Source: Acanthornis magna (Eukaryota; Chordata; Aves; Passeriformes; Acanthizidae). Taken from it: DNA of 64,000 nt. Positions 3,455 through 63,400 of this stretch are shown one piece after another (position 1 is the first letter of the stretch; the number at the start of each line of letters is the position of its first letter). Under the pieces are notes generated by a model. The model saw nothing but the letters and a program-made list of their open reading frames with translations, was not told the DNA's origin and searched no databases. The stretch lies in assembly GCA_036785705.1 (NCBI GenBank), contig JAWUZG010000357.1:558001-622000 (forward strand), given 5' to 3'. A program made the position numbers and the translations under genes.

Positions 3455-4250
3455 AGGACCCCTCCTCACCTGCCCAGCACCCCCAGGTCGAACTTGTGCT
3501 GCCAAAGCCACTGATGCCCCTCAGGGTCAAGGCCCCCCCGGACCCCCAGAATTCTCAAAGCCCCCCAGGACACCCAGAGCCCCCCACAGAGCCCCCCCGG
3601 ACCCCCAAAAAGCCCCCCCAAGACCCCTCCTCACCTCCCCAGCGCCCCCAGGTCAAACCTGTGCTGCTGGAAACTGCCAATGCTCCTCAGGGTCAGGGCC
3701 CCCAGGACCCCCAAACTCCCCCCAAACCCCCCAGAACCCCCCCAAACCCTTCAGGGACCCCCCCAGGACCCCTCCTCACCTGCCCAGCACCCCCAGGTCG
3801 AACTTGTGCTGCCAAAGCCACTGATGCCCCTCAGGGTCAGGGCCCCCCAGGACCCCCAGAGTTCCCAAAGCCCCCCAGGACACCCAGACCTCCCCACAGA
3901 GCCCCCCCCGGACCCCCAAAAAGCCCCCCCAGGACCCCTCCTCACCTGCCCAGCGCCCCCAGGTCGAACTTGTGCTGCTGGAAACTGCCAATGCTCCTCA
4001 GGGTCAGGGACCCCCAGGACCCCCAGAGCTCCCCACAGAGCCCCCCCAGGACCCCCAAAAAGCCCCCCCAGGACCCCTCCTCACCTCCCCAACGCCCCCA
4101 GGTCAAACCTGTGCTGCCGGAAACTGTCAATGCTCCTCAGGGTCAGGGGCCCCAGGACCCCCAGAGTTCCCAAAGCCCCCCAGGACACCCAGAGCCCCCC
4201 CCAAAACCCCCCCAGGACCCCCAAAAAGCCCCCCCAGGACCCCTCCTCAC
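3455..4250 (-). repeat. array of about five copies of the GPAA1 exon 7 donor edge
   Basis: Near 3460-3530, 3628-3697, 3769-3840, 3940-4010 and 4076-4144 the plus strand repeats CTCACC...CAGGTCGAACTTGTGCTGCC...CTCAGGGTCAGGG. This is the reverse complement of the exon 7 end ([20 protein letters not shown]) plus its donor. Period about 120-170 bp. Only the copy at 4251 joins an intact exon body. Confidence 0.85.
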
Positions 4251-4447
4251 CTCCCCAGCGCCCCCAGGTCGAACTTGTGCTGCCGGAAGCTGTTGATGCC
4301 CCGCAGGGTCAGGGCCTCGATGCGGAAGCGCAGGAAGAGCCCGTGGGCCCCCCCGGGCCCCCCCCCGGCCTGGCCCAGCACCATCAGCCCGAGGGTCCGC
4401 AGGCTCTGCGCGTAGCCCGGCCCCGAGGGGCCCTCCGGGGGGGGCAG
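4251..4447 (-). CDS. GPAA1: GPAA1 coding exon 7 (residues 270-335)
   Basis: Acceptor CCCCCCAG, donor GTGAGG. Encodes [31 protein letters not shown] and [11 protein letters not shown], matching human LMVLRQA to NSFRQYKYDL. It ends in phase 2; exon 8 is not intact inside the window. Confidence 0.92.
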
Positions 4448-60400: not shown

Positions 60401-63400
60401 CTCTGGGATGGCAGGTGAGGGACCCCTGGGACCCCCAAAAACCCCAAAAAACCCCCAAAAAACCCCGTAACTGACATCCCCATGAGACTCTCTGGGACGG
60501 CGGGTGAGGGACCCCAAAAAAACCCAAAAAGCCCAAAAAAAACCCCAAAACTCCAATGATTTCCATCAGCCACGAGACCCTATGGGATGGCGGATGAGGG
60601 ACACCAAAAACCCCAAATAAACCCCCCAACAAAACCCTATGGGATAGCAGATGAGGGACCCCAAAAAATACAAAAAAACCCCCAAACCCCCCTAAAAAAT
60701 CCCATAACTGACATCCCCATGAGACTCTCTGGGATGGCGGGTGAGGGACCCCAAAAAAACCCAAAAATCCCCCGTAACTCACATCCCCACGAGACCCTAT
60801 AGCATGGCGGGTGAAGGACCCCAAAAAACCCAAAAACCCAAAAAAACCCCCAAAAAAACCCTAAAAACCCCCAAAAACCCCAAAAAACTCCATAACTGAC
60901 ATCCCCATGAGACTCTCTGGGACGGCAGGTGAGGAACCCCAAAAAAACCCCAAAAATCCCCCGTAACTCACATCCCCACGGGACCCTACGGGATGGCGGG
61001 TGAAGGACCCCAAAAAACCAAAAAACCCCCCAAAAAAACCCCAAAAAACCCCTAAAAACCCCCAAAACCCCCAAAAAACCCCGTAACTGACATCCCCATG
61101 AGACTCTCTGGGACGGCAGGTGAGGAACCCCAAAAAAACCCAAAAAGCCCAAAAAACCCCAAAACTCCAATGATTCCCATCAGCCACGAGACCCTACGGG
61201 ATGGTGGATGAGGGACACCAAAAACCCCCAAAAAAACCCCAAAAAAACCCTACGGGATGGCGGGTGAGGGACCCCAAAAAATACAAAAAAAACCCCAAAT
61301 CCCCTCAAAAAATCCCATAACTGACATCCACATGAGACCCTCTGGGATGGCAGGTGAGGGACCCCAAAAAAACCCAAAAATCCCCCGTAACTCACATCCC
61401 CACGGGACCCTACGGGATGGCGGGTGAAGGACCCCAAAAAACCAAAAAACCCCCCAAAAAACCCCTAAAAACCCCAAAAAAACCCAAAAAACTCCATAAC
61501 TGACATCCCCATGAGACTCTCTGGGATGGCAGGTGAGGAACCCCAAAAAACCCCAAAAATCCCCTGTAACTCACATCCCCACGGGACTCTACAGGATGGC
61601 GGGTGAGGGACCCCAAAAACCCAAAAACCCCAAAAAAACCCAAAAAAACCCCATAACTCACATCCCCATGAGACCCTCTGGGATGGCAAGTGAGGGATGC
61701 CAAAAAAACCCCAAAAAAACCCCGTAACTCACATCCCCACGAGACCCTACAGGATGGCGGGTGAAGGACTCCCGGGACCCCCAAAAACCCCAAAAAAACC
61801 CCCAAAACCCCCAAAAAACTCCATAACTGACATCCCCATGAGACTCTCTGGGACAGCAGGTGAGGAACCCCAAAAAAACCCAAAAAGCCCAAAAAAACCC
61901 CAAAACTCCAATGATTTCCATCAGCCACGAGGGACCCCCGGGACCCTCCCCAAATCCCCCAGGACCTCCCAAATTCTCAGATCGCCACCCAGAACTGTCA
62001 CCCCCTGACCCTTGACCTCTGACCCCTGACCTCTGACCCCTCTCTCCCAGGGGGGCTCCCGGGGGCTCCGGGGCTCAATTTGCTGCTGCGCCGCGACGGA
62101 AGAGTTATCAACCTGGGGGCAAGAGCTCGGTGTCCGTGGAGCCGGGGGTGAGCCCAAAAAACCCCCAAATCACCCCAAAATCTACCCCAAATTCATCCTG
62201 AAACTGCCCCAAAATCTACCCCAAAATCTACCCCAAAGCTATCCCGGAACTACCCCAAAATCACCCCAAAATCTACCCCAAAGCCATCCTGAAACTGCCC
62301 CAAAAGCTACCCCAAATCCATCCTGAAACTGCCCCAAAATCTACCCCAAATCCATCCTGAAACTGCCCCAAAATCTACCCCAAATCCATCCTGGAACTGC
62401 CCCAAAATCACCCCAAAATCTACCCCAAATCCATCCTGAAACTGCCCCAAAATCTACCCCAAATCCATCCTGAAACTGCCCCAAAATCTACCCCAAATCC
62501 ATCCTGAAACTGCCCCAAAATCTACCCCAAATCCATCCTGGAACTGCCCCAAAATCACCCCAAAATCTACCCCAAATCCATCCTGAAACTGCCCCAAAAT
62601 CCTCCCCAAAGCCATCCTGAAACTGCCCCAAAATCTACCCCAAAGCTATCCTGGAACTGCCCCAAAATCACCCCAAAATCTACCCCAAATCCATCCTGAA
62701 ACTGCCCCAAAATCTACCCCAAAGCCATCCTGAAACTGCCCCAAAATCTACCCCAAATCCATCCTGGAACTGCCCCAAAATCACCCCAAAATCTACCCCA
62801 AAGCCATCCTGAAACTGCCCCAAAATCCTCCCCAAAGCCATCCTGAAACTGCCCCAAAATCACCCCAAAATCTACCCCAAAGCTATCCTGGAACTGCCCC
62901 AAAATCACCCCAAAATCTACCCCAAACCCATCCTGAAACTGCCCCAAAATCACCCCAAAATCTACCCCAAATCCATCCTGGAACTGCCCCAAAATCTACC
63001 CCAAATCCATCCTGGAACTGCCCCAAAATCTACCCCAAATCCATCCTGGAACTGCCCCAAAATCACCCCAAAATCTACCCCAAAGCCATCCTGAAACTGC
63101 CCCAAAATCACCCCAAAATCTACCCCAAAGCTATCCTGGAACTGCCCCAAAATCACCCCAAAATCTACCCCAAAGCCATCCTGAAACTGCCCCAAAATCA
63201 CCCCAAAATCTACCCCAAACCCATCCTGAAACTGCCCCAAAATCCACCCTAAAACCGACCCTAAAACCGCCCCAAAATCCATCCCAGAACTGCCCCGAAT
63301 CCATTCTAAAATCACTCCAAAATCCACCCAGAAACTGCCCCGAAATCCATCCCAAATCCACCCCCAAAATCCACCCCAAATCCATCCCGGAACTGCCCCA

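What the first reader, a model, noticed from the sequence alone, without database searches (positions are those of the whole stretch)
3455..61940. Exon-edge minisatellites: repeat units in most introns contain a copy of an exon end with its splice site
Seen directly: in GPAA1, EXOSC4 and OPLAH, tandem units carry 15-70 bases of an adjacent exon joined to the correct donor or acceptor, plus intron filler. Donor-edge copies lie downstream of their exon and acceptor-edge copies upstream, each nearest its parent. This holds for GPAA1 introns 1, 2, 5, 6, 7, EXOSC4 intron 2, and OPLAH introns 1, 3, 4, 5, 10, 11, 16-24. Chance cannot give this in three genes. Inference: junctions act as duplication seeds; copies that extend outward into the intron are tolerated because the original site at the exon stays intact. 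It could be a general way that introns grow in GC-rich avian genes.
Basis: partly seen in the sequence, partly recalled or inferred. Interest (0 to 1): 0.92.

Follow-up and report, generated by a model that had tools for sequence, protein, structure and literature searches.

The report
Exon-edge copies filling songbird introns
In three genes of a songbird, most introns are packed with tandem copies that include the end of a neighbouring exon with its splice site; the pattern is real, was named "exon stuttering" in chicken in 2026, and here looks like spill-over of ordinary intron repeat growth, because the exon edge is not a hot spot and a stop-codon edge shows the same thing.

Summary
Of 66 exon edges in GPAA1, EXOSC4 and OPLAH, 28 have junction-crossing copies in their own intron; 185 of 187 hits lie there, same strand, against 0.55 hits per shuffled window.

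The seed inference is not supported. Copy number falls from intron through junction into exon without a clear peak. Uniform, fully tolerated tandem duplication predicts 17-31 of 32 introns with edge copies; 20 are observed. EXOSC4's coding end, a boundary without a splice site, recurs 22 times in its 3'UTR.

Best reading: unstable repeat-rich DNA duplicates short stretches; a stretch overlapping an exon end carries that edge, and selection removes duplications that alter the message. Hron et al. 2026 (PMC12954441) published this as "exon stuttering", mainly on chicken dot chromosomes. Added here: a songbird locus whose relatives lie on large contigs, the stop-codon case, and evidence against junction seeding. 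Some bird gene models contain exon-edge copies.

The parts
12720..12918 (-). GPAA1 exon 1 donor-edge array: 3 copies, 15 exonic bases (span worked out, as for all arrays below)
12107..12205 (-). GPAA1 exon 2 donor-edge copy: 1 copy, 32 exonic bases
11512..12020 (-). GPAA1 exon 3 acceptor-edge array: 6 copies, up to 35 exonic bases, spacing about 80
10199..10443 (-).
7851..8690 (-). GPAA1 exon 5 donor-edge array: 10 copies
6365..7398 (-). GPAA1 exon 6 acceptor-edge copies: 2, about 460-560 bases apart
5391..6210 (-). GPAA1 exon 6 donor-edge array: 10 copies, 27 exonic bases; GTGGGG intact in the 6 copies printed
3470..4316 (-). GPAA1 exon 7 donor-edge array: 5 copies, 64-66 exonic bases, GTGAGG intact in all 5
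16464..16647 (-). EXOSC4 exon 2 donor-edge copy: 1 copy, 68 exonic bases, 98% identical
16319..16370 (-). EXOSC4 exon 3 acceptor-side copy starting 3 bases inside the exon, 85% identical (not among the 28 edges)
14732..15878 (-). EXOSC4 coding-end array in the 3'UTR: 22 windows with at least 20 of 25 bases of the CDS end, 21 of 22 with the TGA stop; shuffled mean 0.005; no splice site involved
19167..19773 (+). OPLAH exon 2 acceptor-edge array: 3 copies, up to 79 exonic bases
23382..23762 (+). OPLAH exon 3 donor-edge array: 4 copies
23936..29421 (+). OPLAH exon 4 acceptor-edge array: 28 copies, spacing about 200, spanning most of intron 3
29489..30460 (+). OPLAH exon 4 donor-edge array: 3 copies
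31708..32262 (+). OPLAH exon 5 acceptor-edge array: 5 copies
33122..33291 (+). OPLAH exon 6 acceptor-edge copy: 1
39741..39838 (+). OPLAH exon 11 acceptor-edge copy: 1
39966..40416 (+). OPLAH exon 11 donor-edge array: 3 copies
45054..46309 (+). OPLAH exon 16 donor-edge array: 10 copies; nearest decoy would extend the reading frame without a stop
46703..46878 (+). OPLAH exon 17 acceptor-edge copy: 1
47940..48647 (+). OPLAH exon 18 donor-edge array: 3 copies
48862..50546 (+). OPLAH exon 19 donor-edge array: 15 copies, 45 exonic bases, median spacing 112
51070..52052 (+). OPLAH exon 20 donor-edge array: 10 copies
52168..52525 (+). OPLAH exon 21 acceptor-edge copy: 1
52614..53856 (+). OPLAH exon 21 donor-edge array: 14 copies, 22-23 exonic bases, 12 of 14 at 100% identity
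55714..56455 (+). OPLAH exon 23 acceptor-edge copies: 2
56529..57940 (+). OPLAH exon 23 donor-edge array: 7 copies, up to 59 exonic bases ([17 protein letters not shown])
58438..58662 (+). OPLAH exon 24 acceptor-edge copy: 1
58782..61760 (+). OPLAH exon 24 donor-edge array: 34 copies, median spacing about 90, spanning most of intron 24

Best explanation
This is exon stuttering at an unusually repeat-prone locus, produced by undirected tandem duplication followed by selection. Shown: about 87% of non-exon sequence is covered by tandem repeats, and introns with a median of 1,267 bases hold a median of only about 105-170 bases of non-repeated sequence. Inferred: the ancestral introns were short, so a duplicated stretch of 50-200 bases often overlapped an exon end. 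A tandem duplication that starts in the exon and ends in the intron leaves the original exon and its splice site in place and adds a decoy copy on the intron side. A duplication that changes the mature message is lost. The array then grows by unequal exchange or replication slippage. Junctions are not preferred; they mark how far into constrained DNA array growth is tolerated. The same process acts at the EXOSC4 stop codon. The source of instability is probably the G-rich sense-strand filler (G-quadruplex and R-loop prone) in a GC-rich chromosome region; that step is not shown.
For: TRF covers 0.872 of non-exon and 0.087 of exon bases. Non-repeated sequence per intron (32 complete introns): median 104.5 bases (up to 6 mismatches in 24) or 170.5 (up to 4), against 575 and 1,197 in Markov-shuffled introns. 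Copy number drops across the junction with no clear peak in 29 introns of at least 500 bases. Uniform duplication with full tolerance gives 17-31 of 32 introns with edge copies; 10 of 12 settings reach the observed 20 of 32 or more. EXOSC4 coding end: 22 copies in the 3'UTR against 0.005 expected; 4 of 7 passerine relatives aligned end in DTAMEQ like the window and the other 3 differ only near the very end, so the CDS is the likely source. Donor GT intact in 59 of 67 and acceptor AG in 42 of 45 copies found with exon-only queries, in the range of neighbouring positions. Copied exon part is about as conserved as the rest of the same exon, 0.76 against 0.78, P = 0.75, 28 pairs. G-quadruplex motifs: 357 sense and 95 antisense in 48,686 intron bases, 3 and 1 in 5,539 exon bases.
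Against: Exonic share of the unit never exceeds 0.63 (first spacing) or 0.80 (smallest spacing) in 28 arrays, where free breakpoints would give values up to 1; a further filter against exon-rich units, or later growth of filler, must be added. With ancestral introns near 105 bases and full tolerance the simulation expects 28-30 of 32 introns, more than the 20 seen. In 18 of all 48 settings (long ancestral introns and/or low tolerance of edge duplications) it expects fewer than 20, so seeding is not excluded by this test alone. The acceptor profile has a small bump at the junction. Edges with copies encode less conserved residues than edges without (0.73 against 0.82, P = 0.02, 28 and 36 edges), so level of constraint also matters. 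The stop-codon case is one gene; 0 of 3 start-codon edges show copies. No reads, RNA or population data were available. I lowered confidence from 0.75 to 0.72 on recounting the simulation settings and the acceptor bump.
Confidence: 0.72

Rival explanations
1. Junction seeding: splice junctions themselves trigger duplication, for example through G-rich donor sequence, R-loop boundaries or co-transcriptional breaks, so arrays start at exon edges.
For: 28 of 66 edges carry copies. In 18 of 48 simulation settings uniform duplication expects fewer edge-bearing introns than seen. Small bump of copy number at the acceptor junction. Donors exceed acceptors, 17 of 34 against 11 of 32, but P = 0.22.
Against: No clear copy-number peak at the junction; no excess over fully tolerated uniform duplication in 10 of 12 settings; the stop-codon edge without a splice site behaves alike; introns without edge copies at my cut are also expanded, e.g. 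OPLAH introns 2 and 7 with 3,423 and 3,540 bases.
Confidence: 0.12
2. Copies are kept because they work: decoy donors and acceptors are used in alternative splicing or buffer the true site.
For: Copied sites score at or above the parent minus 0.5 in 54 of 67 donors and 35 of 45 acceptors; 6 of 134 donor copies with intact GT would extend the frame without a stop; predicted proteins of Acridotheres, Columba, Lonchura and Vidua contain exon-edge copies.
Against: GT/AG are no better kept than neighbouring bases; 116 of 134 donor copies lead to a stop before the decoy; the bird proteins are gene models, not transcripts.
Confidence: 0.1
3. Assembly or consensus artefact: mis-joined repeats create false copies next to exons.
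For: One apparent 1-base frameshift in OPLAH exon 25 suggests some consensus error; no reads could be checked.
Against: Copies differ from each other and array structure differs from intron to intron; exon-edge copies recur in gene models of other birds; Hron et al. verified the general structure of PHF8 introns with nanopore reads in chicken.
Confidence: 0.05

Closest known systems
Exon stuttering / sequence stuttering (Hron et al. 2026, Genome Biol Evol, PMC12954441; sections 7, 8 part 1, 9 and 16 read)
   Same: Partial exon with adjacent splice site copied in imperfect tandem into the neighbouring intron; proximal introns; exonic part tens of bases (20-187, median 36 there); introns dominated by tandem repeats; coding exons intact.
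   Different: Described mainly on chicken dot chromosomes (190 of 236 introns; 36 on macrochromosomes, 10 on other microchromosomes); the authors mention expansions in other birds and in intergenic DNA. This locus is in a songbird and its bird relatives lie on large contigs. They leave the mechanism open; no stop-codon edge case appears in the sections I read.
Tandem-repeat, G-quadruplex-rich introns of GC-rich avian genes (BMC Genomics 2019, PMC6792250; passages seen)
   Same: Introns made of tandem repeats with G4 motifs; includes leptin, near the end of chicken chromosome 1.
   Different: The passages I saw do not describe exon-edge copies.
Intron gain by tandem genomic duplication of AGGT-bearing exon sequence (review PMC3443670; passages seen)
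   Same: Tandem duplication involving splice-site sequence, tolerated because splicing hides the copy.
   Different: There an exonic segment is duplicated and a new intron appears; here existing introns hold the copies.

Membership tests
Exon stuttering (PMC12954441) | Direct copies of a lateral exon part with its splice site in the adjacent intron | tested here: met
   185 of 187 hits in own intron, same strand
Exon stuttering (PMC12954441) | Source sequence at the exon border (over 90% within 1 base in the paper) | tested here: met
   112 of 123 own-intron hits lie within 2 bases of the exon end, 118 within 10
Exon stuttering (PMC12954441) | Intron dominated by simple/tandem repeats, imperfect copies | tested here: met
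   TRF covers 0.87 of non-exon bases; copies 75-100% identical
Exon stuttering (PMC12954441) | Repeat clusters confined between exons, not altering them | tested here: inconclusive
   No copy inside an exon, but an array also spans the EXOSC4 stop codon into the 3'UTR
Exon stuttering (PMC12954441) | Location on a dot chromosome (strong preference in the paper, not absolute) | tested here: inconclusive
   Chromosome-scale contigs of bird relatives run from about 37 to 198 Mb, e.g. Catharus 165.8, Gallus 149.9 Mb; the window's own contig could not be read
Exon stuttering (PMC12954441) | Intron length polymorphism between individuals | not testable with these tools
   No reads or second assembly
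Intron gain by tandem genomic duplication (PMC3443670) | A new intron bounded by duplicated exonic AGGT | not tested
   Intron positions were not compared with other species; the copies found lie in introns, none inside an exon
   Fall across junctions, small acceptor bump aside; no excess over fully tolerated uniform duplication in 10 of 12 settings

The most novel reading that the evidence does not exclude
Arrays of intact decoy splice sites attached to real exon ends act as a fast, lineage-specific supply of new exon extensions and mini-exons in birds: some decoys are spliced in at low level, so different bird species express different exon-edge duplications in housekeeping proteins.
Probability: 0.15. 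Interest if true: 0.75.

Novelty: new member of a known kind. Interest (0 to 1): 0.5.

Why it matters
It takes a phenomenon described mainly on chicken dot chromosomes to a songbird locus whose relatives sit on large contigs, which would point to GC-rich, unstable DNA rather than dot-chromosome identity as the driver. It gives a simple, testable rule (a boundary between constrained and free DNA, not the splice junction, sets the pattern) and suggests why gene models in such regions contain false or real exon-edge duplications. It also poses a clear splicing question: how the true site is chosen among up to a dozen or more near-identical copies.

Tried and rejected
Overwriting of exon ends by array copies (gene conversion): edges with copies are less conserved than edges without (0.73 against 0.82, P = 0.02; 28 and 36 edges, 64 of 66), but the copied part is no less conserved than the rest of the same exon (0.76 against 0.78, P = 0.75; 28 pairs), so conversion is not supported. 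On OPLAH alone: 0.73 against 0.86, P = 0.013, 19 and 28 edges.

Identity falling with distance from the parent: negative in 10 of 12 arrays with 5 or more copies, P below 0.05 in 3 (GPAA1 D6, OPLAH D19, OPLAH D24); positive, not significant, in 2. Not a general rule.

Donor against acceptor asymmetry: 17 of 34 against 11 of 32, P = 0.22; dropped.

Start-codon edges: best match 15-18 of 25 in 1 kb upstream for 3 of 3 genes: no start-edge copies.

Internal repeats of at least 8 residues in the 360 listed relatives (best 120 of each of three searches): 8 of 114 bird, 1 of 224 non-bird, 0 of 22 without a species name, P = 0.0009; leaving out two that look like filler, 6 of 114, P = 0.007. I sorted species by hand from the names. 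The GPAA1 set excludes normal full-length proteins because of the tool's length limits, so it is rich in odd models. The non-bird case is Brienomyrus OPLAH.

Whole-assembly search: seven attempts, none answered; no genome-wide test was made. Literature: 8 of 10 searches used. Of PMC12954441 I read the outline with abstract, sections 7, 8 (part 1 of 2), 9 and 16, and passages; passages only of PMC9974502, PMC6792250 and PMC3443670. A 2007 PNAS paper on human introns from tandem arrays (Zhuo et al.) is recalled only and was not seen.
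Full report
What is there. The window holds GPAA1 (minus strand, exons 1-7, continuing off the left end), EXOSC4 (minus strand, three exons) and OPLAH (plus strand, 25 exons, end outside the window). Identities are supported by Pfam (Gaa1, RNase_PH, Hydantoinase_A/B) and, for GPAA1 and EXOSC4, by PDB chains. Closest listed proteins are from songbirds: EXOSC4 94% to Catharus ustulatus, OPLAH 89% to Agelaius tricolor and 87% to Catharus, GPAA1 95% to Zosterops borbonicus. 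The window is therefore very probably from a songbird; the species was not identified.

The observation. Each of the 66 internal exon edges was searched against the window. At score 36 or more, with at least 12 exonic bases and the junction crossed, there are 187 non-self hits against a mean of 0.55 per locally shuffled window (20 shuffles). 185 of 187 lie in the parent's own intron, same strand. 28 of 66 edges and 21 of 34 introns are involved. With exon-only queries, 147 non-self hits reach the same score: 123 in own introns, of which 118 are at or within 10 bases of exon ends and on the expected side and 5 are interior; 4 in the EXOSC4 3'UTR; 20 elsewhere, 17 of them from OPLAH exons 9 and 24. 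GPAA1 intron 4 is an added case.

Is the junction special? Three tests speak against it. First, copy number along the gene (29 introns of at least 500 bases): donor side about 16-24 copies within the intron, 4.7 in the first 12 intron bases, 3.9 and 1.6 in the next two 12-base bins into the exon, 0.1 or less beyond 60; acceptor side about 9-15 within the intron, 1.5 in the last 12 intron bases, 1.7 in the first 12 exon bases, about 0.1 beyond 36. At a stricter cut the donor values are flat across the junction (2.8 and 2.8) and the acceptor values rise slightly (0.7 to 1.1). So the exon edge is the tail of intron repeat growth, with at most a small acceptor bump. Second, a simulation in which 53-198 base stretches are duplicated uniformly, rejecting only those spanning both edges, gives 17-31 of 32 introns with edge copies for ancestral introns of 80-400 bases (12 settings, 10 of them at or above the observed 20); with reduced tolerance of edge duplications (36 more settings) it gives 3-31, and 18 of all 48 settings fall below 20. 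The observed number thus needs no attraction to junctions, though the test cannot exclude a weak one combined with strong selection. Third, the EXOSC4 coding end with its stop codon recurs at 20 or more of 25 positions in 22 places of the 3'UTR (21 with the TGA), against 0.005 in shuffled sequence. There is no splice site there. In the alignment, 4 of 7 passerine relatives have the same last six residues (DTAMEQ) and the other 3 differ only near the very end, so the coding sequence is the likely source.

How it most likely works. Tandem repeats cover 87% of non-exon bases. Non-repeated sequence per intron has a median of about 105-170 bases, against 575-1,197 in shuffled introns under the same cut-offs, so the introns look like short ancestors blown up by duplication. 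A tandem duplication that begins in an exon and ends in the intron cannot avoid carrying the junction, and it leaves the exon intact with a decoy on the intron side. Duplications that change the message are removed. This explains sidedness, the lack of copies inside exons, and the stop-codon case. The exonic share of the unit is at most 0.63 of the first spacing (0.80 of the smallest) in 28 arrays, lower than free breakpoints predict; selection against exon-rich decoys or later growth of filler could cause this, and it is unresolved. G-quadruplex motifs are dense on the sense strand of introns, a possible but unshown source of instability.

Splicing consequences. Decoys are mostly intact: GT in 59 of 67 and AG in 42 of 45 copies found without using the splice site as anchor; 54 of 67 and 35 of 45 score about as well as the parent on a simple matrix recalled from vertebrate consensus. 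If used, 116 of 134 donor copies would bring a stop before the decoy, and 6 with intact GT would extend the frame in frame. Nothing shows that they are or are not used. Predicted proteins of other birds contain the same kind of duplication: Acridotheres EXOSC4 (exon 3 acceptor edge), Columba OPLAH (exon 24 acceptor), Lonchura GPAA1 (exon 5 acceptor), Vidua GPAA1 (exon 6 donor, the edge with 10 copies here); Gallus and Haemorhous GPAA1 have repeats in parts outside the window. In total 8 of 114 bird and 1 of 224 non-bird listed proteins have such internal repeats (P = 0.0009). These are gene models, not transcripts.

Comparison with what is known. Hron et al. [quoted passage not shown] over 90% of source sequences within a base of the exon border; median exonic part 36 bases. 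They also mention expansions in other birds and in intergenic DNA, and say that they can only speculate on mechanism. Their main text does not name GPAA1, OPLAH or EXOSC4; supplements could not be read. A search for "exon stuttering" finds only that paper in the held library. What this window adds: a songbird locus; relatives on large contigs (for example Catharus 165.8, Cinclus 152.4, Acridotheres 156.3, Columba 163.7, Ciconia 169.4, Gallus 149.9 Mb; chromosome-scale ones run from about 37 to 198 Mb, while other relatives are on short contigs), far above the 3.9 Mb average of six newly assembled chicken dot chromosomes, so probably not a dot chromosome; a stop-codon edge array; and evidence against junction seeding. 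Contig lengths are those given for 90% identity clusters, so the location is an inference.

Limits. One window, no reads, no RNA, no genome-wide scan (genome search did not answer in seven tries). The simulation depends on assumed ancestral length, copies per event and tolerance, and ignores decay of old copies. Exon boundaries come from alignment to human proteins and may be off in a few weakly conserved places.

Noticed in passing
14732-15878: EXOSC4's coding end is copied in 22 places of the 3'UTR, 21 with the stop codon: the same edge-copy pattern at a boundary that is not a splice site.
   Followed up: yes
62051-62147: OPLAH exon 25 reads out of frame after a run of five G relative to the human probe: a true frameshift or a consensus error.
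   Followed up: no
38686-38748: OPLAH exon 9 has an in-frame coding repeat ([21 protein letters not shown]) not in the human probe; similar simple sequence occurs in several introns.
   Followed up: no
190-3453: About 3.3 kb of C/A-rich array (CCCCAAAAA type), probably within GPAA1 intron 7, sense strand G/T-rich.
   Followed up: no
34856-38395: OPLAH intron 7 is a 3.5 kb strand-skewed array overlapped by six stop-free frames of over 950 codons, three on each strand.
   Followed up: no
all 32 complete introns: G-quadruplex motifs: 357 on the sense strand against 95 antisense; 22 of 32 introns are G-rich on the sense strand.
   Followed up: partly
38464-38527 and 38845-38935: Two short introns of 64 and 91 bases (OPLAH 8 and 9) remain and may show the ancestral intron size.
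   Followed up: no
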